This document shows positions 2,060 through 55,586 of a stretch of 64,000 bases of DNA, piece by piece. The notes under the pieces are model-generated. The model was not told where the DNA came from. It searched no databases and worked only from the letters and a program-made list of their open reading frames with translations. The position numbers and the translations under genes are program-made. The DNA comes from Patulibacter medicamentivorans (GTDB lineage Bacteria > Actinomycetota > Thermoleophilia > Solirubrobacterales > Solirubrobacteraceae), in contig NZ_AGUD01000238.1 in assembly GCF_000240225.1 (NCBI RefSeq), positions 1 through 64,000 of the forward strand, in the 5' to 3' direction. The stretch's first letter is position 1; each line of letters starts with the position of its first letter.

Positions 2060-2154
2060 AGACCTTCCCGTGCCGCGTGCCGGCGTCGTCCTGCGCCCCG
2101 CCGCGAGCCGCGGGCCTCGCCGGTGCCGGGCTGGGGCGGGGTCGGGGGCTCTGT

Positions 2155-2267: not shown

Positions 2268-2427
2268 ACCGGCGGTCGTGGTGGGCGGGGCGGGTAAGGG
2301 GTCGGGCGGCGGCTGCGGCTCCGGGGTAAGGGGTCGAACCCGCGCGGACGCTCCATCCGCCCGATGTGGCGGGGGCCGGCGTAGCCCAGGATGACGTTGT
2401 GCCCAATCCGACCGATGGGAGCGCACG

Positions 2428-2709
2428 ATGCACGGAAACATCACCAATCACCTCGTCGACGCACGGAGCGCCGACCTCGCGCGTGCTGCCCGTCGGGCCT
2501 CGGACCTCGACGTGGCGCGCTACGCCCCCGGCCGTCACGACAACGGCTTCCGCCCCACCGTTCGCCGAGTCCTCGCGCGATACTGGAGCGATGGCGACGC
2601 GCGTGACGAGCACACGGTTCGTCGGCCGCACGGGCGAGCTCGCGGAACTGCGAGCCGCGCTCCGCGACGCCGCGGCGGGACGTCCGTCACTGGCGTTCGT
2701 CGCGGGTGA
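2428..2709 (+). CDS. Possible small protein overlapping the next regulator's start
   Basis: An ATG at 2428 follows a GGGAGCG ribosome-binding-like sequence about 8 nt upstream. It opens a 93-codon frame beginning MHGNITNHLVDARSADLARA. Third positions are G/C-rich as far as about 2590, where the frame starts to overlap the large LuxR gene in another frame. The N-terminal style (MH-x-I, then a helical Ala/Arg/Leu stretch) looks like short hypothetical proteins I associate with actinobacteria, but I do not recognise the family. The Arg-rich C-terminal part lies in the overlap and may be meaningless. Possible roles are a real small protein or a leader cistron coupled to the regulator. Confidence 0.35.
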   Translation: MHGNITNHLVDARSADLARAARRASDLDVARYAPGRHDNGFRPTVRRVLARYWSDGDARDEHTVRRPHGRARGTASRAPRRRGGTSVTGVRRG

Positions 2710-5686
2710 GAGCGGCGTCGGCAAGACCCGTCTCGTCACCGAGCTCGAGCGTCTCGCTCGGGCGCCCCACCAGGATCCCGTCCCCGCGCACGACGGCTCC
2801 GGCGATTCGCCGGAGCCGTTCGCGCGCGTCGTCGGCGGCGACTGCGTCCAGCTCGGCAGCGGCGAGCTGCCCTACGCGCCGCTGATCGCCGCCCTCCGAC
2901 CGCTCGCCCGACGGGGCGATCCGGTCCTCGACGCGCTCGCGCCCGCCGCTCGCGCGGAGCTGGGGCGCTTCCTTCCCGGCCTGGGGCCGGTCCTGCCCGA
3001 CGGCAGCCGGCCGGCCCTCGACGCGCCCGGTGGCGTCGCTGCCCCGTCGGCGTCGGCGGCGGTCGAGGCGGACGGCGTCGCCCAGGGACGGCTGTTCGAG
3101 GCGCTCCTGCACCTCTTCGACGCGCTCGCGCGCGAGCGGCCGCTGCTGCTGACGATCGAGGACCTGCACTGGGCCGACCGCTCGACGCGGGCGTTCCTCT
3201 CCTTCCTCTCCCGCAGCCTCTGCCGCGAGCGGATCCTGGTCGTCGCGACCTACCGGCCGGACGAGCTGCACCGCCGTCATCCGCTCCGTCCGCTGCTGGC
3301 CGAGCTGGAGCGCGACGCCCGTGCCCGGCGGATCGAGCTGGCCCCGCTCAGCCGCGACGAGCTCGGCGAGCAGCTGTCGGACATCCTCGGCGCGCCGCCC
3401 GACGATGCCCTGGTCGACCGACTCTACGCCCGCAGCGAGGGCAACCCGCTCTTCAGCGAGGAGCTGCTCGCCGCCGGCCTCGACGGCCGCGGCGGCCTTC
3501 CGCCGACCCTGCGCGACGCGCTGATGCTGCGGGTCGAGCAGCTGTCCGACGACGCCCAGGAGGTCCTGCGGACGCTGGCGCTCGGCCAGCGGCTGCACCA
3601 CGCGATCCTGGCCGACGCGGCTGGGGTCGACGGTCGCGCGCTGCGCGAGGCGCTGCGCGAGGCCGTCTCCAGCCACATCCTGGTCGCCGACGACGAGGGC
3701 CGCTACGCGTTCCGCCACGCCCTGCTGCGCGAGGTCGTCGACGACGACCTGCTGCCGGGCGAGCGGGCCGAACTGCACCTGGCCCTCGCACACGCGCTCG
3801 AGCGGCGCGTCGACGAGGTCGGCGACGGGGTCTTCCTGACCAGCGGGATCGCCCACCACTACGCCAGCGCCGGCGACCAACCCGCCGCGCTCGGGGCAGC
3901 GATCCGCGCCGCCGACGCGGCCGAGCGCGTCCACGCCTACGGCGAGGAGGCCGAGCTGCTGGAGCGGGCGCTGGCGCTGTGGCCGAACGTCCCCGACGCC
4001 GAGCAGGTCGCCGGCCGCTCCCACGTCCGGGTCCTGCGCCGAACCGCCTTCGCCCACCAGGGGGTCGGCGAGCACGGGCGCTCGGAGACGTTGCTGGTCG
4101 CGGCGCTCGACCAGATCGATCGCGCCGCGGATCCGCGCCTGGCGGCCAGCACGCTCGAGCGCCTCGCCCGCGTGCGGTGGTCGCAGATGCGGCCGATCGA
4201 GGCGCTCGACACGGCGCAGGAGGGTCTCGACCTGCTGGCCGGCGACACCAGCGTCGAGCGGGCGCGGCTGCTCAGCTGGTGGGCCAAGGCGCGGATGCTG
4301 CAGGGGCGCTACCGCGAAGCGGTCGGCGTCGCCCGCGAGGCGATCGCGCTGGCGCAGGCGGTCGGCGACGAGGTCGCCGAGAGCCGTGCGCGCAACGCCC
4401 TCGGCGTCTCGCTCTCCGGCGCCGGCGATCCCGACGGCGGCGGACGCGAGCTGCGGCGCGCGATCGAGGTCGCCAAGCTCGGCGGCCCGCTCGGCGAGCT
4501 GACGAGCGCCTACACCAACCTCGCCGACGCGATGCACATCGCCGGCCGCACGCGCGAGGCGCTGACCGTCGCCCGCGAGGGCTGGGAGATCGCCGCGCCG
4601 CGGTCGGCCGACCGCGCCTGGCTGGAGGCGGCGATCTCGGAGTTCTCGTTCTCGCTCGGGGACTGGGAGACGGCGGAGCGCACGCTGCCGACCGAGGAGC
4701 GGGTCCGGCGGCTGTCGCCCAACGGGGTCCTGAACATCAGCATGCGGCGGCTGGACCTGGCGCTCGGCCGCGGCGACGACGCGGCGGCCGCGGCGCTGCT
4801 GCCCGAGATCGAGGCGCTGTCGGCCAGCTCCTCCGAGCCGCAGTTCCACGGGCCGGTGGCGACCGCCCGCGCGGTCCGCGAGCTGCGCCGCGACAACCTC
4901 GACGGCGCCCGCGAGGCGATCGACCGCGGCCTCGACCGGATCGAGTTCTGCGCCGAGGACGCGGCGCGGATGGCTCACCTGGCGCGCGTCGGCGTCGCCG
5001 TCGAGGCGGCCGCCGCCCAGCGGGCCCGCGACCTGCGCGAGGACGACGGCCCGGCGCTCGCCCGGGCGGAGTCGATGACCGAGCGGGTGCGGGCCGCCGC
5101 CGAGGACGCCGGCCCGGTCGAGCGGGCCAACCTGCTGGAGGCCGAAGCCGACCTCGGCCGCGCCCACGGGCAGGCGGATCCCGACGCCTGGCGCCGGGTC
5201 GAGGCCGCCTGGCGGGAGCTGGAGCACCCCTACCCGGTCGCGCGCGCCCTCTGGCGCCGGGCCGAGGCCGAGCTGTCGGCCGGCGACCGGGCCGCTGCCG
5301 CGGCGACCGCGGTCGAGGCGCTGGCCGCCGCGCGGGCGCTCGGGTCCGACTGGCTGGCGAGCGAGGTCGAAGGGCTCGCCGCTCGCGGTCGGCTGGCGCT
5401 CGACCCTGCCGCCCCGGCCGACGCCGCCCCGATCGCCGCCCCCGAGGACCAGCCGGAGCCCGAGGCGGTCCCGGTCGAGGACCCGTTCGGCCTGACCCCG
5501 CGCGAGCGGCAGGTGCTGGAGCTGGTCGCGGCCGGCGCCACCAACCGCGAGGTCGGGCAGCAGCTGTTCATGGCCGAGAAGACCGCCAGCGTCCACGTCT
5601 CGCGGATCCTGGCGAAGCTCGAGGTCCGCAGCCGCACCGAGGCGGCGGCCGTCGCTCACCGGCTCGGGCTGGTCGCCGCCGGCTGA
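2591..5686 (+). CDS. Large LuxR-family ATP-binding transcriptional regulator (LAL type)
   Basis: A 1031-residue regulator. An N-terminal AAA/STAND-like ATPase has Walker A GESGVGKT (39-46) and Walker B LTIEDLHWAD (about 185-194). A long tetratricopeptide-like helical region (about 400-930) follows, then a LuxR helix-turn-helix from about 965 (LTPRERQVLELVAAG). Family knowledge: LAL/MalT-like proteins couple nucleotide binding and effector sensing to DNA binding. I chose ATG 2591 because conserved sequence (FVGRTGELAEL) begins at once. An in-frame ATG at 2366 would add a low-complexity tail across the repeat-rich leader. The ligand is not evident. A hairpin follows the stop. Confidence 0.9.
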   Translation: MATRVTSTRFVGRTGELAELRAALRDAAAGRPSLAFVAGESGVGKTRLVTELERLARAPHQDPVPAHDGSGDSPEPFARVVGGDCVQLGSGELPYAPLIAALRPLARRGDPVLDALAPAARAELGRFLPGLGPVLPDGSRPALDAPGGVAAPSASAAVEADGVAQGRLFEALLHLFDALARERPLLLTIEDLHWADRSTRAFLSFLSRSLCRERILVVATYRPDELHRRHPLRPLLAELERDARARRIELAPLSRDELGEQLSDILGAPPDDALVDRLYARSEGNPLFSEELLAAGLDGRGGLPPTLRDALMLRVEQLSDDAQEVLRTLALGQRLHHAILADAAGVDGRALREALREAVSSHILVADDEGRYAFRHALLREVVDDDLLPGERAELHLALAHALERRVDEVGDGVFLTSGIAHHYASAGDQPAALGAAIRAADAAERVHAYGEEAELLERALALWPNVPDAEQVAGRSHVRVLRRTAFAHQGVGEHGRSETLLVAALDQIDRAADPRLAASTLERLARVRWSQMRPIEALDTAQEGLDLLAGDTSVERARLLSWWAKARMLQGRYREAVGVAREAIALAQAVGDEVAESRARNALGVSLSGAGDPDGGGRELRRAIEVAKLGGPLGELTSAYTNLADAMHIAGRTREALTVAREGWEIAAPRSADRAWLEAAISEFSFSLGDWETAERTLPTEERVRRLSPNGVLNISMRRLDLALGRGDDAAAAALLPEIEALSASSSEPQFHGPVATARAVRELRRDNLDGAREAIDRGLDRIEFCAEDAARMAHLARVGVAVEAAAAQRARDLREDDGPALARAESMTERVRAAAEDAGPVERANLLEAEADLGRAHGQADPDAWRRVEAAWRELEHPYPVARALWRRAEAELSAGDRAAAAATAVEALAAARALGSDWLASEVEGLAARGRLALDPAAPADAAPIAAPEDQPEPEAVPVEDPFGLTPRERQVLELVAAGATNREVGQQLFMAEKTASVHVSRILAKLEVRSRTEAAAVAHRLGLVAAG

Positions 5687-5701
5687 GCGGCCCGCGGCGG
5701 G

Positions 5702-5722
5702 CGTGCCCGGGGCCCGGGCACG
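5702..5722 (+). terminator. GC-rich hairpin after LuxR gene
   Basis: CGTGCCCGGG at 5702-5711 pairs with CCCGGGCACG at 5713-5722, 16 nt past the LuxR stop. There is no clear U-tract, so it is only a plausible terminator. Confidence 0.5.
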
Positions 5723-5860
5723 AACGTCTCGCGACCGGATCGCGCGGGCGCGACGAGGGCTCGTGAGAGGTTGGTGAGAGAGGGGGTCCGACCGGGTCGC
5801 CGCCGCCGTAGGTTGGCGAGCGCAGCACCCGCCCCGTCCTCCGCACCAGGAGCTCACCCC

Positions 5861-6661
5861 ATGTTCCCGTCCTCGCCGCGCGCCGTCCCAGCGCGCTCGA
5901 TCGCCGTGGCCGCGACCTTCGGCGCCGCGCTGCTGCTGGCCCCGGCAGCGGCCGACGCGGCCACCGGCACGGTCACCGTCAACAAGGGCTACAGCCTCAG
6001 CGCCCGCAGCGCGCCCCTGTCGACCGCGAGCAAGGTCCGGCAGCTGGCCAACGGCAGCAGGGTCACGATCGTCTGCCAGACCCAGGGCAGCCGCGTCAGC
6101 GGCCGCTTCGGCACGTCGACCCTGTGGGACAAGCTGGCCGGCGGCGGCTACGTCAGCGACACCTTCGTCTACACCGGCAGCGACGGCCGCGTCGCGCCCG
6201 ACTGCGGCAGCAAGCCGAAGCCGCCGAAGCCGGCGCCGCCCGCGCCGACCGGCAACGTCGCCAGCGTGACCCTCCGCGACGACTACCCCTACCGCGGCCA
6301 GGGCAGCGGCGTCGACCCGTGGAACTTCTACAAGGGCCAGTGCACGAGCTTCGTCGCCTGGCGCCTGAGCCGCAACATCCCCGGCTTCGGCAACGGGATG
6401 GGCGGCGGCCGCTTCGGCAACGCCAACACCTGGGACGACAACGCCCGCCGGCTCGGCTACCTGGTCAACTCGAGCCCGACGGTCGGCTCGGTGATGGTCC
6501 GCAACAGCGGTCGCTGGGGCCACGTCGCCGTGGTCGCCAAGGTCAAGGCCGGCAAGGTCCTGCTGGAGGAGTACAACCACGTCCACAAGGACGCCTACAG
6601 CCAGCGCTGGGTGGCCCGCACCAGCGACCTCCGCTACATCCACTTCGACCGCAGGCGCTAG
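5861..6661 (+). CDS. Secreted CHAP-domain protein with N-terminal SH3-like domain
   Basis: 266 residues. ATG 5861 follows AGGAG at 5848-5852. A signal peptide (about 1-33, ending AAADA) is followed by an SH3-like domain (about 36-115), a Pro/Lys linker (about 118-132) and a CHAP amidase/peptidase domain. Visible catalytic residues are Cys161 (YKGQCTSFVAW) and His221 (WGHVAVV). Family knowledge: CHAP enzymes cleave peptidoglycan peptides, so this is a likely exported wall hydrolase. It has a single-gene context between the LuxR regulator and a glycosyltransferase. The protein ends in Arg-Arg-Arg (see findings). Confidence 0.88.
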   Translation: MFPSSPRAVPARSIAVAATFGAALLLAPAAADAATGTVTVNKGYSLSARSAPLSTASKVRQLANGSRVTIVCQTQGSRVSGRFGTSTLWDKLAGGGYVSDTFVYTGSDGRVAPDCGSKPKPPKPAPPAPTGNVASVTLRDDYPYRGQGSGVDPWNFYKGQCTSFVAWRLSRNIPGFGNGMGGGRFGNANTWDDNARRLGYLVNSSPTVGSVMVRNSGRWGHVAVVAKVKAGKVLLEEYNHVHKDAYSQRWVARTSDLRYIHFDRRR

Positions 6662-6700
6662 CCGACCGGCGGGCGCACGGCGCGGGTACAGTGCCTCGCC

Positions 6701-7804
6701 GTGCGCCTGCTGATCCTCAGCGCCGACATCGGCGAGGGACACGACCTGCCCGCCCGCGTCCTCGCGGCCGGCGTCCGCGAGCGGGTCCCGGACGCCGAGG
6801 TCGCGATCGTCGACACGCTCGCCGTCTCGGGACCGACGATCCGCAAGATCGTCCGCGAGGGATCCGACGTCATCCTGGAGCGCGGGCCGGCGGTCTTCGA
6901 CCTCCAGTATCAGCTGGCGTTCCACCGGCCGACGCGCTGGATCGGCGACGTCGGGATGCCGCTGCTGGCCGGCCGCCGGCTGCTGGAGACGATCCGCTGG
7001 CAGCGCCCGGACGTGGTCGTCTGCACCTACCCGATGGCGAGCTACGTGCTCGGCGTGCTGCGGCGGCTCGGGCGCCTGCACGTGCCGGTCGCCTCGGCGA
7101 TCACCGACCTCGCGGCGATGCGCTACTGGGCCCACCCCGGCGTCGACCTGCACCTGCTGACCCACGAGGAGTCCGCCTTCGAGGTCCGCGAGATCGCCGG
7201 CGTCGGCGCGCGGATCGAGACCGTGCGCGGGCTGACCCACGCCGCGTTCGACCGGCCGCTCGACCAGCGGGAGGCACGGGCCGCGCTCGAGCTTCCCGCG
7301 TCCGGCCCGCTGATCGTCGTCTCCGGCGGCGGCTGGGGCGTCGGCGACCTGGAGGGCGCCGTCCGCGCCGGCCTCGAGGCGGACCCGCAGGCGACGATCG
7401 TGGCGCTCTGCGGCCGCAACGGCGAGCTGCGCGCGGCGCTCGACGCCGCCTTCGCCGGCCAGCCGCGCGTCCGCACCTGGGGCTTCACCGACCGGATGGG
7501 CGAGCTGATGGCCGCCGCCGACGTGCTCGTCCACTCGACCGCCGGCCTGACCGCGCTCGAGGCGATGATCCGCGGCGCGCGCGTGATCTCCTACGGCTGG
7601 GGGGTCGCCCACATCCGGCTGAACAACCGCGCCTACGAGCGCTTCGGGCTGGCGCGGGTGGCCGTCGACGCGCCGGCGCTGCGGCAGGCGCTGGCCGACG
7701 CGCTGGCCGAGGGACCCTCCCCGGACCTGGGCTACGGGGCGCGGCCGTCGGCCGCGGACCTGGTGCTGGAGCTGGCCGCGTCGCGCGCCGGCGCCGCCGC
7801 CTGA
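6701..7804 (+). CDS. MGDG-synthase/MurG-like glycosyltransferase (GT28 type)
   Basis: 367 residues from a GTG start at 6701. The N terminus (MRLLILSADIGEGHD) carries the SA-x-I-G-x-GH signature of monogalactosyldiacylglycerol-synthase-like and MurG-like enzymes. The C-terminal half has a nucleotide-sugar-binding fold with GGGWGVGD (about 208-215) and a STAGLTALEAMIRG donor-site motif (about 283-296). Expected role: transfer of a sugar to a lipid acceptor at the inner membrane. The exact donor and acceptor cannot be told. Its last 73 nt overlap the convergent membrane-protein gene. Confidence 0.82.
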   Translation: MRLLILSADIGEGHDLPARVLAAGVRERVPDAEVAIVDTLAVSGPTIRKIVREGSDVILERGPAVFDLQYQLAFHRPTRWIGDVGMPLLAGRRLLETIRWQRPDVVVCTYPMASYVLGVLRRLGRLHVPVASAITDLAAMRYWAHPGVDLHLLTHEESAFEVREIAGVGARIETVRGLTHAAFDRPLDQREARAALELPASGPLIVVSGGGWGVGDLEGAVRAGLEADPQATIVALCGRNGELRAALDAAFAGQPRVRTWGFTDRMGELMAAADVLVHSTAGLTALEAMIRGARVISYGWGVAHIRLNNRAYERFGLARVAVDAPALRQALADALAEGPSPDLGYGARPSAADLVLELAASRAGAAA

Positions 7805-8745
7805 TCGACGCCGCCGGCCGGGTCGACCGTCCGCGGCCGCGCCCCGGCGACCCGTGCGACGCCCGCCACCGACGGCACCGCGGGATCGCCCGGGTGCTCG
7901 ATCGCGTTGACCGTCCGCGAGCGGCCGAGCCCGGCCCCGCCGACCAGCACCAACAGCAGCCCGAGGACCACCAGCGCCCCGCCGCCCGGGGTCCCGCTCC
8001 AGCTCTCGTGGAGCAGGAACGGCGCGCAGGCGACGGGAATCGCGGTCTCGGCCACGAACATCGGCGGCGCCACGCGCGTGGCCGCGAACCGCTGGAGGGC
8101 GGTCATGTCGACGAGGAACCCGATCCCCGCGGCGAGCACGGTCGCGCCGGCCCAGCCGAGCGCGGCCAGCGGCCGGCCGTGCTGCAGCTCGACGACGATC
8201 AGCTTGCCGGTCAGGGCCGAGGCGGCGAACGCCGTCCCGGCCGAGGCGATCAGCATCCAGGCGCCGGCACGGGCCTGGCCGCGCGCGAACGGCAGCGCGA
8301 TCGCCAGCGCCAGCAGCGCGAGCACGCCGATCAGGCGGCCGCTGTCGGGGATCGCGTCGCTGCGCTCGGGCGCCACCAGCGTCAGCAGCACCACCCCGGC
8401 GACGACGATCGCCGCGGCGCTCCACGCCGCCCGCCCGACCTGCTCGCCGAGGATCCGGCGGCCGAGGATCAGCAGCAGCACCAGCCCCAGGGCCAGCGTC
8501 GGCTGCACGACCGTGAACGGCGCCAGCGCGAACGCCACCAGCTGCAGCGGCCAGCCGAGCACCGCCAGCAGCGTTCCCAGCACCCACCGCGGCCGTCGCA
8601 CCAGCCGCGTCAGCAGCGAGGGCCGCAGGCCGTGCTCGTCGGCGACGGCCTGCGCCTCGGTCGCCTGCAGGACCACCGCGCCGTCGAAGCAGGCGGCGGC
8701 CCCGGCGGCGGCGACGATCCCGAGGATGGTGTCCGAGGAGGGCAC
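7732..8745 (-). CDS. DMT/EamA-like multi-pass membrane protein
   Basis: 337 residues with about nine hydrophobic helices in the first 280 (for example LGIVAAAGAAACFDGAVVLQA and LALGLVLLLILGRRILGEQV). The pattern resembles drug/metabolite-transporter or NIPA-like carriers. The last about 60 residues are a low-complexity Ala/Arg/Ser tail that exists only where the gene overlaps the 3' end of the glycosyltransferase, so the tail may have arisen by loss of an earlier stop. The substrate cannot be inferred. Confidence 0.8.
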   Translation of the reverse strand: MPSSDTILGIVAAAGAAACFDGAVVLQATEAQAVADEHGLRPSLLTRLVRRPRWVLGTLLAVLGWPLQLVAFALAPFTVVQPTLALGLVLLLILGRRILGEQVGRAAWSAAAIVVAGVVLLTLVAPERSDAIPDSGRLIGVLALLALAIALPFARGQARAGAWMLIASAGTAFAASALTGKLIVVELQHGRPLAALGWAGATVLAAGIGFLVDMTALQRFAATRVAPPMFVAETAIPVACAPFLLHESWSGTPGGGALVVLGLLLVLVGGAGLGRSRTVNAIEHPGDPAVPSVAGVARVAGARPRTVDPAGGVDQAAAPARDAASSSTRSAADGRAP

Positions 8746-43122: not shown

Positions 43123-43907
43123 CGCGCCACCAGCTCCCGCAGCGCCGAGAGCTCCTCGGCGGTGGCCGGAACGGTCTCGCGCAGGTGCTCCGCGACGAGC
43201 AGGTCCCAGCCCGTCGCGGCTCGCACCTGCTCCGGGTCGACGCCGGGATGGACCTGCGTCAGCGTCAGCTCGAGGTGCTCGGGATCGGGTTCCAGGACGC
43301 CGAGCTCGGTGTAGACGGCCGTCGGCCCCGCGCCGCGCAGGCCGAGCCGCTTGCGCGATCCCGGGCCGTCGCCGTGACCGACCGTGGTCCGGAAGTCCAG
43401 CTGCTCGACGAACGTCCGCCGGCCATGCGGGACGATGATCGCCACCTCGTGGCAGCCAGCGGAGATCTCGGGCGCGCCGCCAGCACCCGGCAGCCGGGTC
43501 CGCGGGGCGTCGTAGTCCCCGATCACGGTCGAGTTGAGGTTCGCGTAGCGGTCGATCTGCGCCGCACCGAGGAACGCCAGCTCGATCCGCTCGCCCTGCA
43601 CCCAGTAGGCGAACATCTCCGGGACCGAGACGACGGCGTCGGCGCTGACCGCCAGCGCGTCGTCGCCGATCGACAACGGGACCCGGTACGGGCGGGCGCC
43701 GATCGTGCCGGACTCGTAGACGATCACCAGCTCGGGGTTGTGGAGCATCCGCGCGAGGATCGCCGCGGTGCTCGGGCGCCCGACGCCGATGAAGCAGGAG
43801 CGGGCCCGGCCGAGCCGGCGCGCGGCGACCACCGTCTGCAGCTCTTCCGGGGTGGCCGCCCGGTGACCGCCGCGGGAGCGGCCGGCGCGACCCGTCACCG
43901 CGGTCAT
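43119..43907 (-). CDS. pcaJ: 3-oxoadipate CoA-transferase, beta subunit
   Basis: 262 residues from ATG 43907, overlapping pcaI by 4 nt. The putative catalytic Glu65 lies in VYESGTIGAR, corresponding to the SENG-like loop of class I CoA-transferase beta subunits. It transfers CoA from succinyl-CoA to 3-oxoadipate together with PcaI. The N-terminal 18 residues are Arg/Gly-rich and poorly conserved in style, so a later start is possible. Confidence 0.87.
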   Translation of the reverse strand: MTAVTGRAGRSRGGHRAATPEELQTVVAARRLGRARSCFIGVGRPSTAAILARMLHNPELVIVYESGTIGARPYRVPLSIGDDALAVSADAVVSVPEMFAYWVQGERIELAFLGAAQIDRYANLNSTVIGDYDAPRTRLPGAGGAPEISAGCHEVAIIVPHGRRTFVEQLDFRTTVGHGDGPGSRKRLGLRGAGPTAVYTELGVLEPDPEHLELTLTQVHPGVDPEQVRAATGWDLLVAEHLRETVPATAEELSALRELVAR

Positions 43908-44722
43908 GCCGTCGCCTCGGTGGTCGTCAGGAGGTGCTCGGCGAGCCACGCCCGGAAGCGGTCGCGGTCGCGGCTGATCGCGTCCCATTCGCGGTAGGCG
44001 TCGTTGTCGCGCTCGGTGAAGCCGAGGGCGTAGGACGGCAGCGAGCCGCCGGGGGCCTCGGCGACCGCGTCGATCGTCCAGCCGGGCAGGACGATCCCGC
44101 CGGGGCGTGGTTGCAGCTCTTCGACGATCTGCTCGACGGTGACCAGCGAGCGGGTTGCGGCGAGCACGGCCTCCTTCTGCACCCCGGGGATGCCCCACAG
44201 CTGGACGTTGCCGTGGTGGTCGGCTTCCTGGGCGTGGATGATCGCGACGTCGGGGCGCAGGGCGGGGACGGCGGCCAGCGACTCGCCGGTGAACGGGCAG
44301 GCGATCCGCTCGACGGCGGTTCGCCGTTCCAGGTCGGTCCCGGCGTAGCCGCGCAGGATCCCGAACGGCAGGTTGGCCGCGCCGGCGGCGTAGCGCGCCG
44401 CCATCCCGGCGTGGCTGTGCTCCTCGAACTCCAGCGGATGCGGCCAGTCGTGCTCGATCGCGTCGCGGAAGCGGTGCAGCGAGCCGACGCCGGGGTTGCC
44501 GCCGTACGAGAAGACGAGTCGTCGTGCGGCGCCGGCGCCGATCAGCTGGTCGTAGAGCAGGTCGGGCGTCATCCGGATCAGCTCCAGGTCGCGGCGGCCC
44601 TGGCGCAGCATCTCGTGGCCGGCCGCGAACGGGATCAGGTGGGTGAAGCCCTCCATCGCGACGCTGTCGCCGTCGCGGACGAGCTCCGCGACGGCGACGG
44701 GGAGGGGCAGGATCTCGGCCAT
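43904..44722 (-). CDS. pcaI: 3-oxoadipate CoA-transferase, alpha subunit
   Basis: 272 residues. GDSVAMEGFTHLIPFAAGHE (18-37) is the alpha-subunit glycine-rich opening in modified form. RPDVAIIHAQEADHHGNVQLWG is the conserved family block. It lies 4 nt after catA, in the same operon. It works as a heteromer with PcaJ in the penultimate step of the ortho pathway. Confidence 0.87.
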   Translation of the reverse strand: MAEILPLPVAVAELVRDGDSVAMEGFTHLIPFAAGHEMLRQGRRDLELIRMTPDLLYDQLIGAGAARRLVFSYGGNPGVGSLHRFRDAIEHDWPHPLEFEEHSHAGMAARYAAGAANLPFGILRGYAGTDLERRTAVERIACPFTGESLAAVPALRPDVAIIHAQEADHHGNVQLWGIPGVQKEAVLAATRSLVTVEQIVEELQPRPGGIVLPGWTIDAVAEAPGGSLPSYALGFTERDNDAYREWDAISRDRDRFRAWLAEHLLTTTEATA

Positions 44723-47055: not shown

Positions 47056-47967
47056 TCACGATATGAGTGTGTCGGCGGGGATCCCCATCACGGCGGTCTG
47101 CACCAGGTCCAGGGCGCGGGCCACGAGCGGTGGTGGCTCCCCGGCCGCGTGGGCGACGGCGATCTGCGCGCGCGGAGCGACGCCGGCCAGTGGCCGGTAG
47201 ACCGCGCCGGCGACCGTCATGCCCGAGACCGAGGTGGGAACGAGCGACACGCCGAGCCCGGCGGCGACGAAGCTGACCAGGGTCGCGGTCTCCGTCACCT
47301 CCATCCCGATCCGCGGCGTGAATCCGTGGGCGACGCAGGCGTCCTCGACGAGATCGCCGAGGACCGATCGGAGGTGCGGGGCGTAGACGATGAACGGCTC
47401 GTCGGCGAGCGCCTCCAGGGGCACCTCGTCCGCATCCGCCAGCCGGTGACCGGCGGGCAGCACGGCCGCCAGCGGCTCGGAGCGGATCACCTCGAGCGTC
47501 AGGTCCCGGGACCGGACCGGCGGCCGCAGGAAGCCGATGTCGAGCGTCCCCTGGAGCAGGCCCTCGACCTGCGCCGGGGTGATCATCTCGCCGCGGAGAT
47601 CGAGGGTGACGTCGGGGAGGCCCTCGCGCAGCGCCGTCGCCACCCGCGGGAGCAGCGAGTAGGTGGTCGATCCGGTGAAGCCGATCGAGAGCCTGCCGAT
47701 CTCGCCGTCGGAGGCCCGCCGGCAGTCCTCGGCCGCGGCGTCCGCGGCGGCGAGGATGCCCCGCGCCCGGTCGAGCAGCACCGCCCCGGCCGGCGACAGC
47801 TCGACCCGTCGCGTCGTCCGCTGCAGCAGCGTGACCCCCAGCTCGGCCTCGAGCCGGCGGATCTGCTGGGACAGCGGCGGCTGGGCGATGTGCAGGCGCT
47901 GGGCGGCCCTCCCGAAGTGGCGCTCCTCGGCGACGGCGACGAAGTAGCGCAGGTGGCGGAGCTCCAT
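47056..47967 (-). CDS. LysR-type regulator of aromatic catabolism (CatR/BenM-like)
   Basis: 303 residues, with HTH 1-60 (LRHLRYFVAVAEERHFGRAA; QPPLSQQIRRLEAELG) and full effector domain. The N-terminal block closely resembles CatR/BenM/CatM regulators, which respond to cis,cis-muconate. It sits between the catabolic operon (same strand, 90 nt upstream of catB) and the divergent monooxygenase operon. A LysR-type palindrome (47994-48014) lies in its own divergent promoter. Likely activator of both arms. Confidence 0.88.
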   Translation of the reverse strand: MELRHLRYFVAVAEERHFGRAAQRLHIAQPPLSQQIRRLEAELGVTLLQRTTRRVELSPAGAVLLDRARGILAAADAAAEDCRRASDGEIGRLSIGFTGSTTYSLLPRVATALREGLPDVTLDLRGEMITPAQVEGLLQGTLDIGFLRPPVRSRDLTLEVIRSEPLAAVLPAGHRLADADEVPLEALADEPFIVYAPHLRSVLGDLVEDACVAHGFTPRIGMEVTETATLVSFVAAGLGVSLVPTSVSGMTVAGAVYRPLAGVAPRAQIAVAHAAGEPPPLVARALDLVQTAVMGIPADTLIS

Positions 47968-48044: not shown

Positions 48045-48076
48045 CCGTCCCGTTCAACCCCTGGAGAGTGAGCAGC

Positions 48077-49642
<1,566 letters not shown>

Positions 49643-49671: not shown

Positions 49672-50253
49672 GTGAGAGGGAACGCGATCACGGACCCGCT
49701 GGGGGCGCTGCGGCGGCCACCGGCCGGGCCGGCCGTCGTCACGATCGGCACCTTCGACGGGGTCCATGCCGGCCACCGGGCGCTGCTGGCCCGGGCGCGC
49801 GACGAGGCCCGCCTGCGCGCGGCGCGACTGGTCGCGGTGACGTTCTCGCCGCGGCCCGACGCGGTCGTCCGCCCGCGCGCCGCGCTGCCTGACATCTGCG
49901 ACCTCGACGAGCGGCTGCGACGGCTGCGGGACGCGGGGGCCGACGAGGTCGTCGTCGTCCCGTTCACGCCGGCGACGATGGCCGTCGCCGCCGCGGCCTT
50001 CGTCGACGCGCTGGTCGACGGGCTCGGGGCGATCGCGATCTGCGTCGGCAGCGAGTTCGCCCTCGGCCGCGGGCGCCGGGGCACGATCCCGGCGCTGCGC
50101 GCGCTGGGGATCGAGGTCGTCGCCGTCCCGGTCCTGACGCTGCCCGGCCGGACCGAGAAGGTCAGTTCCAGGCTGATCCGCGGCGCGATCGCCCGCGGGG
50201 TGCCGGCCCACCTGGCGATGGCCGAGACGGTCGCCGGAGCGGCATGTCGGTGA
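49672..50253 (+). CDS. Stand-alone RibF-like FAD synthetase (FMN adenylyltransferase) domain
   Basis: 193 residues from GTG 49672. GTFDGVHAGHRALL (26-39) is the HxGH-type nucleotidyltransferase signature, and SSRLIRGAI (about 165-173) matches the second RibF motif. The riboflavin-kinase domain that normally follows (RibF about 310 residues) is absent: the frame stops within the flavin reductase start (10-nt overlap). Expected reaction: FMN + ATP to FAD. Sitting between a FADH2 monooxygenase and its reductase, it probably boosts FAD supply. Confidence 0.83.
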   Translation: MRGNAITDPLGALRRPPAGPAVVTIGTFDGVHAGHRALLARARDEARLRAARLVAVTFSPRPDAVVRPRAALPDICDLDERLRRLRDAGADEVVVVPFTPATMAVAAAAFVDALVDGLGAIAICVGSEFALGRGRRGTIPALRALGIEVVAVPVLTLPGRTEKVSSRLIRGAIARGVPAHLAMAETVAGAACR

Positions 50254-50756
50254 CCACGATCTCGCCCGAGGCGATGCGGGCCACGCTCGGGCGCTTCTGC
50301 ACCGGCGTGACCGTCGTGACCACGGCCGACGACGCCGGGGACGACGTCCACGCGATGACCGCCAACGGCTTCGCGTCCGTCTCGCTGACCCCGCCGCTGG
50401 TGCTCGTGTCCGTCGACCACCGCACGCGGATGCACCAGCGGCTGCCGGAGACCGGGCGCTACGGGGTCTCGATCCTGGCCGCCGACCAGGAGCGGATCGC
50501 GCTGCACTTCGCCGGTCGGCCGCTGGCGGAGCACGACGAGCTGTTCGAGTGGGCCGACGGGGTGCCCTTCGTGCGCGGAGCGATCGCGCACGTCGGCTGT
50601 CGGCTCCACGCCTGCCACGAGGCCGGCGATCACACGCTGTATCTGGGCCGGGTCGGCCACCTCGCCAGCCGTGCTGGCGACCCGCTGCTGTTCCACCGCG
50701 GCTCGTTCGGGCAGATGTCCCGCGACGAGGCGCTGGCCAGCGGCTGGGTCTGGTGA
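50244..50756 (+). CDS. NAD(P)H:flavin reductase, monooxygenase component
   Basis: 170 residues. The flavin-reductase-like split barrel is marked by the opening TLGRFCTGVTVVTT (14-27), then MTANGFASVSLTPPLVLVSVD (38-58) and the GDHTLYLGRVGHL (HDHTIFIGEV-type) segment. Equivalent to HpaC/PheA2, which provides FADH2 to the oxygenase. It overlaps the FAD-synthetase gene by 10 nt, indicating translational coupling. Confidence 0.9.
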   Translation: MSVTTISPEAMRATLGRFCTGVTVVTTADDAGDDVHAMTANGFASVSLTPPLVLVSVDHRTRMHQRLPETGRYGVSILAADQERIALHFAGRPLAEHDELFEWADGVPFVRGAIAHVGCRLHACHEAGDHTLYLGRVGHLASRAGDPLLFHRGSFGQMSRDEALASGWVW

Positions 50757-50845: not shown

Positions 50846-52192
50846 ATGCCCAGGAACGACGGCGCTCAGCGCCGAGCACGCCCCCGAGGTCGAGCGGGGC
50901 GGTGGATCGCGGCGCTGACCGTCGCCGTTCTCGCGCTTCCAGTCGCGGGTTGCGGCAGCGACGACGGCGGAGGCTCCTCGACCGGGAGCGCCGCGGGCAC
51001 CGCCGCGGCCGCCGCGGCGAAGGCGACCTGCGGCCTGGCCAACGGCCGCAGGGCGACCGGTACGCCGATCAAGGTCGGCGCCGTCGTCGGAGCCACCGGC
51101 CCGGCAGACTTCAGCTCGGCCGCGAAGTCGGCGAAGGCCTACTTCGACTGCGTCAACGCCAATGGCGGCATCGACGGTCGGCCGGTCCGGTACCTCGTCG
51201 AGGACGACGGCTGGAACCCGGAGAAGGCCGGGCAGGTCGCGCGCAAGCTCGTCGAGGACGAGAAGGTCGTGGCGATGATCGGCAGCACGAGCTTCGTCGA
51301 GTGCGGCGTCAACGCGAAGTACTACGAGCAGCGCGACGTGCTGGTCGTCGCCGGCGTCGGCGTGCCGCGCGAGTGCTTCCACAGCCGCAACATCGCGCCG
51401 ACCAACCAGGGGCCGCGGCTGAGCGGCATCGGCGCGGCGCAGTACGCCAAGCAGAACGGCGCGAAGTCGATCGCCTGCGTCGCCAACAGCATCCCCAACT
51501 TCGGGGGCTGGGTCTGCGAGGGCGTCGAGGCGTGGGGCCGCCAGGCCGGCGTCGAGGTGAAGTCCTTCAACGGCAAGCCCGACGCGAGCGACGCGGAGTC
51601 GATCACCCTCAAGGCGCTCGGCGCCAAGACCGACGCGGTGGTCCTGGTGGACGCGGCGCCGGCGATGGCCGCGTACCTGAAGGTCGCCCAGCAGCAGGGC
51701 AGCGGTGGCGAGGACCGGCCGTGGTACCTGCCGACCTCGGCCTACGACCTGAGCTTCCCCAAGACGGTCGGGGCCTACTGGAACGACAAGCTGACCGCCG
51801 CGATCGAGCTCGCGCCGCTCGACGGCACGGGCAGGGACAACGCCACCTGGAGCGCGATCATGGACGAGTACGGCGGGGACGCTCCGCGCGACTCGTTCTC
51901 GCAGGCGGGCTACCTGGCGGCGAAGATCTTCGTCGACACCGCCCTGAAGCTGGAGGGCCAGGTCGACCGGGCGAGCGTCGGCGCGGCGCTGCGCGACGTC
52001 CGGGACTTCAAGACCGATCTGCTCTGCGCGCCGTGGTACTTCGGGGACGGCGATCGCCACAACCCGAACCACGCGGGTCGGGTCGTGCGCCAGACCGGCG
52101 AGGGCGAGACCGGGTTCTCGACGATCGAGCAGTGCCGCGAGATCGAGGACCCCGAGCTGCGCGACGTCCGGGACGCCGAGCGCGGCGCCTGA
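50846..52192 (+). CDS. ABC transporter substrate-binding lipoprotein (branched-chain-amino-acid/aromatic type)
   Basis: 448 residues from ATG 50846 (GGGAG 5 nt upstream; ATG 50831 possible). Lipoprotein signal with lipobox LPVAGC (Cys36). The periplasmic-binding fold type I starts IKVGAVVGATGPADF. Family members (LivK-like) bind amino acids, urea or aromatic compounds. Gene order after a phenol-type oxygenase points to an aromatic ligand (inference). Confidence 0.87.
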   Translation: MPRNDGAQRRARPRGRAGRWIAALTVAVLALPVAGCGSDDGGGSSTGSAAGTAAAAAAKATCGLANGRRATGTPIKVGAVVGATGPADFSSAAKSAKAYFDCVNANGGIDGRPVRYLVEDDGWNPEKAGQVARKLVEDEKVVAMIGSTSFVECGVNAKYYEQRDVLVVAGVGVPRECFHSRNIAPTNQGPRLSGIGAAQYAKQNGAKSIACVANSIPNFGGWVCEGVEAWGRQAGVEVKSFNGKPDASDAESITLKALGAKTDAVVLVDAAPAMAAYLKVAQQQGSGGEDRPWYLPTSAYDLSFPKTVGAYWNDKLTAAIELAPLDGTGRDNATWSAIMDEYGGDAPRDSFSQAGYLAAKIFVDTALKLEGQVDRASVGAALRDVRDFKTDLLCAPWYFGDGDRHNPNHAGRVVRQTGEGETGFSTIEQCREIEDPELRDVRDAERGA

Positions 52193-52220
52193 CGGGCGGA
52201 CGGGAAGGCGAGGCGACACG

Positions 52221-53096
52221 ATGCCCGATCTGGGTCCCTTCATCGTCACCGGGCTGGCGCTCGGCGCGGTCTACGCGCTGTCCGGCGTCGGCCTGGTGGT
52301 GCTGCACCGCACGACCGGGGTCGTGAACTTCGCCTACGGGGCGACGGGCGCGATCGGCGCGCTCGTCGCCTGGTCGATCCTCGAGAGCGGCGGCGCCGAG
52401 CCGGTGGCCTGGGCGGCCGCCGTCGCGGCCGCCGTGGCCCTCTCGGTCCTCTACGGGGTGACCGTCGCCGCGCGATTGGCCCAGCGCGACCCCGCGGTCC
52501 AGGCCGCGGCGTCGCTCGGGTTCACGCTCGTCCTGCTCGGTCTGGCGATCCTGCTCTGGCGGGACGAGCCGCGGACCTTCGCGCTGCCCACCGACCAGTG
52601 GAGCCGCGACGTGCTCGGCGTGACCGTCGTCGCCACCAAGCCGCTCGCGCTCGGCCTCGCCGTCGCGGTGACGGCCGTCGTCGCGGTGCTCCTGCGCCGG
52701 ACCCGCGGCGGCCTGGCCCTGCGCGCGATGGCCGACGATCGTGAGCTGAGCGGCCTGCTCGGCGTGCCGGTCGTCCGGTTGGGGGCCGTCGCCTGGGCGC
52801 TGTCCGGCGCCCTGGCCGGCGTCAGCGGGCTGCTGGTCGCCGACCTGATCCGGTTGGACGCCGGCACGCTCACCTTCCTGGTGGTTCCCGGGATCGCGGC
52901 GGCGATCGTCGGCCACCTGTCCTCGCTGCCGTGGACGCTCGCCGGCGGCCTCGGCATCGGCCTGGTCGAGGCGCTCGCGACGCCGTTCGACAGCCTCACG
53001 AGCTATCGCGGGGCGGCGCCGTTCGCGGTCGCGATCGGGTTCCTGCTCTGGCACCAGCGCCGTCGCGGCGCCGCGACGCGGATCGGGGTGGCGTGA
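52221..53096 (+). CDS. Liv-type ABC transporter permease (LivH-like)
   Basis: 291 residues, about eight hydrophobic helices. GLALGAVYALSGVGLVVLHR and GVVNFAYGATGAIGALVAW near the N terminus are the LivH signature; ADDRELSGLLGVPVVRLGAVAWAL is the ATPase-coupling loop. Its stop overlaps the next gene's ATG by 1 nt. Confidence 0.88.
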   Translation: MPDLGPFIVTGLALGAVYALSGVGLVVLHRTTGVVNFAYGATGAIGALVAWSILESGGAEPVAWAAAVAAAVALSVLYGVTVAARLAQRDPAVQAAASLGFTLVLLGLAILLWRDEPRTFALPTDQWSRDVLGVTVVATKPLALGLAVAVTAVVAVLLRRTRGGLALRAMADDRELSGLLGVPVVRLGAVAWALSGALAGVSGLLVADLIRLDAGTLTFLVVPGIAAAIVGHLSSLPWTLAGGLGIGLVEALATPFDSLTSYRGAAPFAVAIGFLLWHQRRRGAATRIGVA

Positions 53097-54127
53097 TGCG
53101 CGCGGTCCCCGGCCTCGGCCCCTCCGGCGGCCCCGTGGCGGCCGTGCTGCGGCCGGTCGCCGTCGCCGTCGCCGCGGTCCTCGTGCTCGGTCTGGCGGTG
53201 CCTGCGGCGTTCGGCGTCGCATGGCTGAGCGTCTGGACCAGCTGCGCGATCTTCGCCGTCGCCGCAGCCGGCGTCGGCCTCCTCCACGGGTGGCTCGGCC
53301 TGACCTCGCTGACCCAGGTCGGCCTCGTCGGGGTCGGGGGGTGGATCACCCTCCGCCTGGCCTTCGCGACCGAGTGGCCGTTCGTCGTCCAGGTCGCACT
53401 GGCTGGCCTGCTGACGGGCGGCCTGGGTCTGCTGCTCGCGCTGCCGGCGCTCCGTCTGCGCGGGCTGTACCTGGCGCTGGTGACCCTGATGGTCGCCGCC
53501 GGCCTCGACGTCGTCTTCAACGCCACCGGCTTCCCCAACGGCGGCGGGGGCGTCCTCGGCTACCAGTCGACCGGTGCCCTGCAGCGGCTCGAGCGCCCAC
53601 GGTTCGCCGGCTCCGACGCGGGCTACTTCCGGCTGGTCCTGGCGGTCGCGGCGGTCGCGATCCTGGTGGTGCTGGCACAGCTGCGGGGTCGGGCCGGACG
53701 GACCTGGGCGCTGATCGCCCGCAGCGAGGCCGCGGCGACCAGCGCCGGCGTCTCGCTGTCGCTGTCGCAGATCTGGGCGTTCGGCCTGGCCGGCGTCCTG
53801 GCCGGTCTGGCCGGTGGCCTGCTCGCCGGGCAGCTCGGGCAGCTCGGGCCCTCGACCTTCCAGATCTCGGAGTCGATGCTGCTCTTCGCCCTGGTCGTCG
53901 TCGCCGGCGCCCACCACTGGGCGGGCTGGATCCTGGCCGCGGTCCTCTACAAGGTCGTGCCCTTCGCCCTCAGCGAGGCGGGCGTCGACGGGAGCGTCGC
54001 GACGATCCTCTTCGGCGTCGCGCTGATGGGCAGCATGCTGGGATCGCCGCACGGCGTCGTCGGCGCGGCCGAGCAGGCGCTCGTGACGCGTCGGATCCGC
54101 CGCGACCACGAGGAGGTCCTCGCGTGA
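53096..54127 (+). CDS. Liv-type ABC transporter permease (LivM-like)
   Basis: 343 residues from ATG 53096; GTG 53093 would add one residue. GLTSLTQVGLVGVGGWITLR and the coupling-loop equivalent ARSEAAATSAGVSLSLSQIWAF mark the LivM family. About ten helices. Overlaps the ATPase gene by 4 nt. Confidence 0.88.
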   Translation: MRAVPGLGPSGGPVAAVLRPVAVAVAAVLVLGLAVPAAFGVAWLSVWTSCAIFAVAAAGVGLLHGWLGLTSLTQVGLVGVGGWITLRLAFATEWPFVVQVALAGLLTGGLGLLLALPALRLRGLYLALVTLMVAAGLDVVFNATGFPNGGGGVLGYQSTGALQRLERPRFAGSDAGYFRLVLAVAAVAILVVLAQLRGRAGRTWALIARSEAAATSAGVSLSLSQIWAFGLAGVLAGLAGGLLAGQLGQLGPSTFQISESMLLFALVVVAGAHHWAGWILAAVLYKVVPFALSEAGVDGSVATILFGVALMGSMLGSPHGVVGAAEQALVTRRIRRDHEEVLA

Positions 54128-54837
54128 TCACCATCGACGGCCTGACCGTCCAGCTCGGCGGCGTTCGCCCGCTGAGCGACCTGACCGTGCAGCTCGACGC
54201 GCCGATCCACGGTGTGATCGGCCCCAACGGCGCCGGCAAGACGACGCTGCTGAACGTCCTCAGCGGACTCGTCCGCCCGGCGTCCGGGCGGATCGCGTGC
54301 GACGGCGTCGCCCTGCACCGCATGGGCGCTCGCCGGCGAGCCCGCTGGGGCGTGCGGCGGACCTTCCAGACCGAGTGCCTGGCGGAGCGGCTGTCGGCCC
54401 GCGCCAACGTCGCGGTCGCGGTCGACGCGACCAGCTCCCGCCGGCAGCGCGCGGCGACCGTCGAGCGCGCCCTCGCGTTGACCGGCATCGCCGACCCGGA
54501 ACGCCCGGTCGCGACGCTCGACGGGTTCCAGCGGCGGCTGGTCGAGATCGCCCGTGCCCTCGCGGGAGCGCCGCAGGTCGTCCTGCTCGACGAGCCGGCC
54601 GGCGGTCTCTCGGGTGCCGAGTCCGCCGCGCTGGCCACGCTCGTGCGGGCGATCCCGGAGGCCTGCGGCGCGCAGGTGGTGCTCGTCGATCACGATGTCG
54701 AGCTGATCGCCGCCGTCTGTCCGCGGGTCACGGTCCTGGACTTCGGCGAGCACCTGGCCACCGGCGCGACCCGGGCGACGCTCGACGACGACCGCGTTCG
54801 GGCGGCCTGGCTCGGCAACCGCGAGGTGGCGGCATGA
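54124..54837 (+). CDS. ABC transporter ATPase (LivG-like), unusual signature loop
   Basis: 237 residues from GTG 54124. Walker A GPNGAGKT (about 34-41), Walker B VVLLDEPAGGL (about 157-167) and H-loop VDHD are intact. The ABC signature reads LDGFQRRLVEIARAL instead of LSGGQ or LSYGQ, losing the Ser and second Gly usually needed for ATP contact. The partner LivF has a normal LSGGQ, so the heterodimer may have one degenerate site. It overlaps LivF by 4 nt. Confidence 0.88.
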   Translation: MITIDGLTVQLGGVRPLSDLTVQLDAPIHGVIGPNGAGKTTLLNVLSGLVRPASGRIACDGVALHRMGARRRARWGVRRTFQTECLAERLSARANVAVAVDATSSRRQRAATVERALALTGIADPERPVATLDGFQRRLVEIARALAGAPQVVLLDEPAGGLSGAESAALATLVRAIPEACGAQVVLVDHDVELIAAVCPRVTVLDFGEHLATGATRATLDDDRVRAAWLGNREVAA

Positions 54838-55586
54838 CGTCCGACGCCGCCACCGTGGCGCTCGCCGCGACGCCGCGCGACGCCGCGTTGGCGCTCGCGG
54901 ACGTCTCCGTCGCCCGCGGCGGTCGCCCGGTCGTCCGTGGGGTCGACCTGGAGGTCCCCGCCGGCCAGGTGACGGCCCTGCTGGGGCCCAACGGGGCGGG
55001 GAAGAGCACGCTCGTGCTCGGGATCGGCGGCGTCCTGCCGATCGCCGGCGCGGTGCGCATCGGCGGCCGCGACCTGGCCGGCCGCAGCCCCCACCAGATC
55101 CGGGCCGCCGGCCTGGCGGTCGTCCCCGAGGGGCATCGCGTGCTGCGCGGCCTGAGCGTGGCCGACAACCTGCGGGCCGCCGGGACCGGCGTCAGCCGCA
55201 GCGCGCTCCGTGCCGGCATCGAGCAGGCATGGGTCACGTTCCCCGAGCTGGAGGCCCGCCAGGGACAGCTCGCTGGGCGGCTCTCGGGAGGTCAGCAGCA
55301 GATGCTGGCGATCGCGTCGGCGTTGGTCGGACAGCCGTCGTACGTGATCATCGACGAGCTCTCGCTCGGCCTGGCCCCGGTCGTCGTCGAGCGCCTCGAG
55401 CCGGTCGTGCGCGGGATCGCGGAGCGGGGGATCGGGGTGCTGCTGATCGAGCAGTTCGCCACCGTCGCCCTGCGCCTGGCCGATCGCGTGGCGATCATGG
55501 ACCGCGGCCGGATCGGCTTCCGCGGCGTCGCCGACGAGCTCGCCGACCGTCCCGAGCTGCTGCACGGCGTCTACCTGGCGGGCTGA
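54834..55586 (+). CDS. ABC transporter ATPase (LivF-like)
   Basis: 250 residues from ATG 54834. Walker A GPNGAGKS (about 51-58), intact signature LSGGQQQMLAIASAL (about 149-163), Walker B VIIDELSLGL and H-loop region IEQF typical of LivF. Last gene of the oxygenase-transporter operon. Confidence 0.9.
   Translation: MTSDAATVALAATPRDAALALADVSVARGGRPVVRGVDLEVPAGQVTALLGPNGAGKSTLVLGIGGVLPIAGAVRIGGRDLAGRSPHQIRAAGLAVVPEGHRVLRGLSVADNLRAAGTGVSRSALRAGIEQAWVTFPELEARQGQLAGRLSGGQQQMLAIASALVGQPSYVIIDELSLGLAPVVVERLEPVVRGIAERGIGVLLIEQFATVALRLADRVAIMDRGRIGFRGVADELADRPELLHGVYLAG

What the first reader, a model, noticed from the sequence alone, without database searches (positions are those of the whole stretch)
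49672..50253. Stand-alone FAD synthetase domain embedded in a flavin-monooxygenase operon
Bacterial RibF normally fuses riboflavin kinase to FMN adenylyltransferase. Here only the adenylyltransferase half is present (both motifs visible), translationally coupled to the flavin reductase and just after the FADH2-dependent oxygenase. This looks like a dedicated on-site FAD maker for a two-component oxygenase.
Basis: partly seen in the sequence, partly recalled or inferred. Interest (0 to 1): 0.66.

Follow-up and report, generated by a model that had tools for sequence, protein, structure and literature searches.

The report
Kinase-less FAD synthetase in monooxygenase operon
Next to genes that probably hydroxylate phenol, this soil bacterium carries an extra FAD-making enzyme without its usual kinase half, and similar kinase-less genes turn up beside the same type of oxygenase in three bacterial phyla, which suggests that these oxygenases repeatedly acquire their own cofactor supplier.

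Summary
Window 49672-50253 encodes a 193-aa protein that is only the FMN-adenylyltransferase (FMNAT) half of RibF. It has no kinase half, starts 29 bp after an HpaB-type oxygenase gene and overlaps a flavin reductase gene by 10 bp. The genome has a separate complete RibF.

The association recurs. All seven relatives found in Solirubrobacterales and Pseudonocardia lie beside flavin monooxygenase genes, six of them beside HpaB and a flavin reductase. Of 24 kinase-less plasmid loci from Actinomycetota, Pseudomonadota and Bacillota, 20 have a flavin reductase plus an HpaB-, acyl-CoA-dehydrogenase- or luciferase-type oxygenase nearby. None of five full-length plasmid RibF controls does. A single origin of all kinase-less proteins is rejected (AU p 3.5e-7).

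Best explanation: a dedicated FMN-to-FAD converter for two-component monooxygenases, here probably a phenol hydroxylase feeding catechol ortho-cleavage. No activity has been shown. The window protein departs at three active-site positions (N125E, F128L, T165R in C. ammoniagenes numbering), so its own activity is less certain than the family's.

Stand-alone bacterial FMNATs were tallied in 2010 (PMC2972280). I found no held paper describing this operon association, but the library is partial.

The parts
49672..50253 (+). kinase-less FAD synthetase (FMN adenylyltransferase module of RibF), 193 aa
   Evidence: PF06574 117.7 bits, no PF01687; fold match to C. ammoniagenes FADS FMNAT module, 34% id, rmsd 1.8
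49747..49776 (+). GTFDGVHAGH: HxGH nucleotide-binding motif (CaFADS H28/H31)
   Evidence: invariant in 31 kinase-less and 40 full-length sequences
49840..49860 (+). TFSPRPD: isoalloxazine-side loop; R at the H57 position, which is also seen in full-length RibFs
50044..50067 (+). VGSEFALG: Gx(D/N) motif with E at the catalytic N125 position and L at F128
   Evidence: E in 2 of 31 kinase-less and 0 of 40 full-length sequences; F128 kept in 40/40 full-length and 22/31 kinase-less
50158..50181 (+). KVSSRLIR: xxSSTxxR motif with R at the T165 position
   Evidence: SS and R invariant; R at T165 is unique to the window copy
48068..49642 (+). HpaB-type FADH2-dependent oxygenase, 524 aa
   Evidence: PF11794 + PF03241; TIGR02310 705.7 bits, below its 885.2 equivalog cut-off; best PDB 4oo2 and HpaB
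50244..50756 (+). flavin reductase, 170 aa, start overlaps the FADS stop by 10 bp
   Evidence: PF01613 133 bits; best PDB 1rz0, phenol 2-hydroxylase component B
47056..47967 (-). divergent LysR-family regulator
   Evidence: PF00126 + PF03466; same position in L034, L035, L057, L058
45847..47028 (-). muconate cycloisomerase-like enzyme
   Evidence: PF13378/PF02746; TIGR02534 166 bits, below cut-off; downstream in the same operon in L034, L035, L057, L058
45498..45833 (-). muconolactone isomerase-like (CatC); named from its conserved position beside the cycloisomerase and dioxygenase genes, not scanned for a domain
   Evidence: tblastn conservation in L034, L035, L057, L058
44727..45497 (-). catechol 1,2-dioxygenase-like (CatA)
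   Evidence: PF00775 + PF04444; TIGR02438 302.6 bits, below its cut-off
43904..44722 (-). CoA-transferase subunit
   Evidence: PF01144 74 bits

Best explanation
The gene encodes a dedicated FMN adenylyltransferase. It converts FMN made by the cell's ordinary RibF, plus ATP, into FAD and so enlarges the pool of free FAD. The overlapping flavin reductase reduces FAD with NAD(P)H to diffusible FADH2, which the HpaB-type oxygenase uses to hydroxylate a phenolic substrate (probably phenol to catechol), and the neighbouring cat genes degrade the product. Two-component oxygenases use flavin as a travelling substrate rather than a bound cofactor, so a co-expressed FMN-to-FAD converter would pay off when the pathway is induced. 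Lacking the kinase half, it draws only on existing FMN. Shown: domain identity, absent kinase, motifs, operon structure, recurrence. Inferred: enzymatic activity, free-FAD limitation, substrate.
For: Domain and fold. A full RibF with kinase exists elsewhere in the genome, in a truB-ribF-rpsO setting. The HpaB-FADS-reductase order with cat genes is kept in S. soli, G232, G1037 and MAG L035. The order is swapped but the genes are kept in G1031. In P. bannensis FADS pairs with a reductase and an HpaB only 26% identical to the window's, so the link follows the chemistry rather than one pathway. Plasmid loci of three phyla: 20 of 24 kinase-less loci carry a flavin reductase plus HpaB-, ACAD- or LLM-type oxygenase; 5 of 5 full-length RibF controls sit apart from such genes, four of the five beside housekeeping genes (Fisher p 5.7e-4 for 20/23 vs 0/5). 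Kinase-less proteins are not one lineage (AU p 3.5e-7), so the pairing arose more than once. FADS-reductase overlaps of 4-14 bp occur in six proteobacterial loci. Raising FAD supply raises flux through such oxygenases in engineered cells (PMC10958861).
Against: No activity data for any member. The window copy has E at the N125 position (N125D kills forward activity in CaFADS, although D is natural in other FADSs; PMC3509593), L at F128 (non-aromatic F128A/K abolish FMNAT; PMC7279473) and R at T165. Some HpaB loci lack the partner (G208). Some partners are luciferase-type enzymes that often use FMNH2. Canonical RibF might already supply enough FAD.
Confidence: 0.62

Rival explanations
1. A reduced-flavin adenylyltransferase: it takes FMNH2 from the neighbouring reductase and makes FADH2 directly for the oxygenase, a three-component system, possibly with channelling.
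For: S. pneumoniae FADS needs reduced flavin for FMNAT (PMC5548840), and that paper cites B. subtilis FADS as specific for reduced flavins. Tight overlap with the reductase gene here and in six proteobacterial loci. The pocket residue F128 is altered only in kinase-less proteins (L or C; 9/31 vs 0/40).
Against: No biochemistry. Some loci place FADS away from the reductase (L067, L074, L088). F128 is kept in most kinase-less proteins.
Confidence: 0.15
2. Catalytically dead or weak flavin-binding protein: the module has become an FMN/FAD carrier or buffer for the reductase-oxygenase pair.
For: N125E, F128L and T165R in the window copy. In CaFADS, F128A/K abolish FMNAT but tighten FMN binding from 7.1 to 0.4/0.2 uM (PMC7279473). 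Faster divergence than HpaB and the reductase.
Against: HxGH, G123, SSxxR and the aromatic at Y106 are invariant in all 31, which ATP-independent binding would not require. Most kinase-less members keep D/N125 and F128.
Confidence: 0.15
3. Bystander or duplicate: a decaying extra ribF copy with no link to the oxygenase.
For: Rare in the class: 6 of 146 family genomes. Missing beside one HpaB relative.
Against: Recurs in three phyla in non-monophyletic lineages, purifying selection, conserved operon overlap, absent in full-length controls.
Confidence: 0.04
4. The enzyme adenylylates or cytidylylates something other than FMN (a pathway intermediate or modified flavin).
For: CTP_transf_like superfamily match. 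Substituted isoalloxazine-side residues in the window clade.
Against: Partners differ in pathway but share flavin chemistry; closest structures and all motif matches are FADS.
Confidence: 0.04

Closest known systems
Bifunctional RibF / type I FAD synthetase (C. ammoniagenes FADS, PDB 2x0k; T. maritima TM379, 1mrz)
   Same: FMNAT module fold (34% id, rmsd 1.8 to CaFADS), HxGH and SSxxR motifs
   Different: No riboflavin kinase module; catabolic operon setting; E at N125 and L at F128 in the window copy
Prokaryotic stand-alone FMNAT and 'FADS-type II' tallied by PMC2972280 (5 genomes with type I + FMNAT, 8 with type I + type II, including Arthrobacter chlorophenolicus A6)
   Same: RibF-like FMNAT without PTAN kinase, alongside a complete RibF
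   Different: That survey gave no gene context or function in the sections read. Here members are tied to two-component flavin monooxygenase loci.
Plant AtRibF1/AtRibF2 (as described in PMC2972280)
   Same: RibF-derived proteins with FAD synthetase activity and no detectable riboflavin kinase activity
   Different: Organellar housekeeping enzymes that keep a shortened C-terminal module
lux-rib operon of Photobacterium (PMC6409340)
   Same: Flavin-supply genes co-transcribed with a reduced-flavin-dependent oxygenase and its reductase
   Different: Supplies riboflavin (ribEBHA) rather than the FMN-to-FAD step; luciferase uses FMNH2
HpaBC / PheA1A2 / NphA1A2 two-component monooxygenases
   Same: Oxygenase and reductase families
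   Different: The standard two-component description has no third, FAD-making gene

Membership tests
RibF-family FMN adenylyltransferase module (PF06574) | Profile match above the curated cut-off | tested here: met
   117.7 bits vs 27
RibF-family FMN adenylyltransferase module (PF06574) | HxGH motif | tested here: met
   HAGH, residues 32-35
RibF-family FMN adenylyltransferase module (PF06574) | Gx(D/N) motif with catalytic Asn/Asp | tested here: not met
   GSE in the window and L035; D/N/S in the other 29 kinase-less sequences, D/N in all 40 full-length ones
RibF-family FMN adenylyltransferase module (PF06574) | xxSSTxxR motif | tested here: inconclusive
   SS and R kept, T replaced by R
RibF-family FMN adenylyltransferase module (PF06574) | Aromatic isoalloxazine pocket (F62, Y106, F128) | tested here: inconclusive
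   V, F and L in the window; F62 is usually aliphatic in the compared full-length RibFs too, but F128 is F in all 40
RibF-family FMN adenylyltransferase module (PF06574) | FMN + ATP to FAD activity | not testable with these tools
   needs protein
Bifunctional RibF (type I FADS) | C-terminal riboflavin kinase PF01687 | tested here: not met
   absent in the window protein; the genome's only PF01687 match is in the separate RibF at C319
Two-component flavin monooxygenase locus | HpaB-type oxygenase gene | tested here: met
   PF11794 305 bits, PF03241 230 bits
Two-component flavin monooxygenase locus | Flavin reductase gene in the same operon | tested here: met
   PF01613 133 bits, 10 bp overlap
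4-hydroxyphenylacetate 3-monooxygenase (TIGR02310 equivalog) | Score above the equivalog cut-off | tested here: not met
   705.7 bits vs 885.2
Recurrent kinase-less FADS associated with flavin monooxygenases (this report) | Flavin oxygenase and flavin reductase genes within about 6 kb | tested here: met
   window; 20 of 24 plasmid loci; six of seven relatives with HpaB and reductase

The most novel reading that the evidence does not exclude
Kinase-less FAD synthetases are a recurrently recruited third component of two-component flavin monooxygenases: they adenylylate reduced FMN handed over by the reductase and deliver FADH2 to the oxygenase, with pocket changes at F128 marking adaptation to reduced flavin.
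Probability: 0.13. Interest if true: 0.85.

Novelty: new variant of a known kind. Interest (0 to 1): 0.62.

Why it matters
Two-component flavin monooxygenases are textbook two-part systems whose flavin is assumed to come from the general pool. A third, FAD-making gene that recurs in three phyla, in lineages that are not one clade, implies that free FAD can limit these pathways in nature. It assigns a testable role to proteins now annotated 'FAD synthetase family protein', 'RibF_2' or 'hypothetical protein', and offers a ready part for biocatalysis, where FAD supply is already known to limit HpaBC flux.

Tried and rejected
(1) (window protein against plasmids) found nothing. Relatives used as queries found many kinase-less loci, so that negative is misleading; low-complexity masking of the R/A/V-rich protein is the likely cause. 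(2) H57R ('PRPD') looked like a functional change but also occurs in full-length RibFs of family f10. F62 loss likewise: it is aliphatic in most of the full-length RibFs compared. (3) Recent truncation of the host's own RibF: rejected, the window protein belongs to a separate 100/100 clade. (4) FMN-riboswitch idea (draining FMN derepresses riboflavin synthesis): no RF00050 match in this 93%-complete genome, dropped. (5) Single origin of all kinase-less proteins: rejected (p 3.5e-7). A shared origin of the window clade and the main proteobacterial/Bacillota HpaB-FADS-reductase clade is not clearly rejected (p 0.051). (6) Matches L041/L042 turned out to be full-length RibFs. (8) Obligate pairing rejected: G208 HpaB has neither partner.

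Full report
OBSERVATION. The ORF at 49672-50253 (+) starts with GTG, the only start codon upstream of its first motif, and encodes 193 aa. Pfam finds FAD_syn PF06574 (117.7 bits) and the CTP_transf_like superfamily, and no Flavokinase PF01687. The gene follows an HpaB-type oxygenase by 29 bp and overlaps a flavin reductase by 10 bp. No terminator-like site lies in the stretch. The same genome carries one further PF06574 match, which also holds the genome's only PF01687 match, in a truB-ribF-rpsO setting. So this is an extra, kinase-less copy. An AlphaFold2 model (pLDDT 89.6, 7 sequences) has the FMNAT modules of solved RibF/FAD synthetases as its 22 best PDB matches, led by C. ammoniagenes FADS (34% identity, rmsd 1.8).

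SURROUNDINGS. HpaB scores below the 4-hydroxyphenylacetate equivalog cut-off (705.7 against 885.2 bits). Its best solved relatives are a chlorophenol-4-monooxygenase entry (4oo2) and HpaB. The reductase is closest to the phenol 2-hydroxylase reductase 1rz0. A divergent LysR gene, then muconate cycloisomerase-, CatC- and catechol 1,2-dioxygenase-like genes and a CoA transferase, lie on the other strand. In four relatives the cat genes follow the reductase in the same direction. Phenol hydroxylation to catechol is therefore the likeliest step (inference from these families).

CLOSE RELATIVES. Seven further members were found: S. soli (L034/L059), G1037 (L057), G232 (L058), a Solirubrobacterales MAG (L035), G1031 (L056), Pseudonocardia bannensis (L036) and Solirubrobacterales 70-9 (L037). 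LysR-HpaB-FADS-reductase-MLE-CatC-CatA is kept in four. G1031 has HpaB-reductase-FADS, an order swap that keeps the set. P. bannensis has a reductase, FADS, a hydrolase and an HpaB only 26% identical to the window's. In 70-9 FADS sits near a styrene-monooxygenase-like gene and a luciferase-like gene. The four genomes checked (P. bannensis, S. soli, L035, 70-9) also have a second, full-length-type RibF; in MAG L035 that copy is cut by a contig end before the kinase. Members are rare: 6 of 146 family genomes and 7 of 232 order genomes (lower bounds because only the best candidates are scored). Together they form one clade with 100/100 support, apart from full-length RibFs. Between G1037 and S. 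soli dN is 0.16 and dS 0.77, which indicates purifying selection, weaker than for HpaB.

WIDER RECURRENCE. Using relatives as queries, 24 kinase-less loci were read from plasmids of Actinomycetota, Pseudomonadota and Bacillota. They were chosen by annotation (names not saying 'bifunctional', or no annotation) without knowledge of the neighbours, except Pseudonocardia L067, whose plasmid had also been hit with HpaB. Independent tblastn finds HpaB plus flavin reductase in 18, an acyl-CoA-dehydrogenase-type oxygenase plus reductase in one (Variovorax SRS16), a luciferase-type oxygenase plus reductase in one (Caballeronia), a reductase only in two (Arthrobacter YC-RL1, Sinorhizobium RAC02) and neither in two (Terrarubrum, Pseudarthrobacter A6). 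In Paracoccus TOH the HpaB lies about 5 kb away and in Aminobacter about 2.5 kb away. Sagittula, Sphingobium, Agrobacterium, P. yeei and Marinibacterium show exactly the window's order HpaB-FADS-reductase, with FADS-reductase overlaps of 4-14 bp; Bradyrhizobium has a 4-bp overlap with HpaB divergent. In Marinibacterium the depositors named the three genes nphA1-ribF_2-nphA2. Pfam finds no kinase in the ten kinase-less proteins tested, up to 324 aa, and no RFK match appears in any of the 24 loci. Five full-length plasmid RibFs, read as controls, lie apart from flavin oxygenases and reductases, four of them in recognisable housekeeping settings such as murJ-ribF-ileS, truB-ribF and ribF-rpsO. 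Fisher p is 5.7e-4 for 20/23 against 0/5. Plasmids are rich in catabolic genes, so a matched survey is still needed.

ORIGINS. On a tree of 71 FMNAT modules the kinase-less label needs 6 changes, and well-supported branches force at least 4. A single clade is rejected (AU p 3.5e-7), whereas joining the window clade with the main proteobacterial/Bacillota clade is not clearly rejected (p 0.051). So recruitment happened more than once, but the exact number is uncertain because the RibF sampling is narrow.

ACTIVE SITE. HxGH, G123, the Y106-position aromatic and SSxxxR are invariant in all 31 kinase-less sequences. The window copy has E at the N125 position (also in L035), L at F128 and R at T165. 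In CaFADS N125A/D have no forward activity (PMC3509593), and non-aromatic F128 variants lose FMNAT but bind FMN more tightly (PMC7279473). F128 is F in 40/40 full-length and 22/31 kinase-less sequences; the changed ones are L in the window clade and C in L035 and three beta-proteobacterial members. Hence FMNAT activity is likely for the family and somewhat less certain for the window protein.

MECHANISM. The most economical reading is an induced FMN-to-FAD converter that feeds the reductase-oxygenase pair. It fits the chemistry of two-component oxygenases and the gain from extra FAD supply in engineered hosts (PMC10958861). The reduced-flavin variant is attractive because S. pneumoniae FADS adenylylates only reduced FMN (PMC5548840).

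PRIOR KNOWLEDGE. PMC2972280 states that no monofunctional FMNAT enzymes had been reported in prokaryotes, yet tallies stand-alone FMNAT sequences in a few genomes and 'type II' FADSs in others, including Arthrobacter chlorophenolicus A6. The lux-rib operon of Photobacterium (PMC6409340) is the best precedent for on-site flavin supply. Ten searches of the held library found no description of the association reported here. The library lacks most subscription papers, so this is not proof of novelty.

Noticed in passing
L072 (Sphingobium sp. YC-XJ3 plasmid) 962-8164: HpaB-FADS-reductase with LysR and IclR regulators lies between two IS6100 copies. Near-identical FADS hits on Sphingobium baderi and S. 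yanoikuyae plasmids (and a closely similar Sphingopyxis terrae hit) suggest a mobile phenolic-degradation cassette.
   Followed up: partly
L083 (Aminobacter MSH1), L086 (Thioclava), L073 (Paracoccus TOH), L080 (Bacillus badius), L085 (Peribacillus): Kinase-less FADS loci with HpaB-family genes and HutD, RidA, DUF1028, isochorismatase-family or Asp/Glu racemase genes look like a different, possibly N-heterocycle, catabolic pathway.
   Followed up: no
L036:4023-9373 (Pseudonocardia bannensis): Flavin reductase, an ORF without Pfam match (4528-5790), FADS, alpha/beta hydrolase, HpaB-like and SnoaL-like genes form a separate catabolic cluster around FADS.
   Followed up: partly
L089 (Caballeronia) and L084 (Variovorax SRS16): Kinase-less FADS beside a luciferase-like and an acyl-CoA-dehydrogenase-like oxygenase with their flavin reductases, so the link extends beyond the HpaB fold.
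   Followed up: partly
window 50846-55586: Downstream genes read like a branched-chain-amino-acid-type ABC transporter (binding protein, permeases, two ATPases with Walker motifs), possibly uptake of the aromatic substrate. Judged by eye, not scanned.
   Followed up: no
L066:5847-7415 (G208): An HpaB 70% identical to the window's, with a dioxygenase gene nearby but no detectable FADS or flavin reductase in the 15-kb stretch read: where its FADH2 comes from is unclear.
   Followed up: partly
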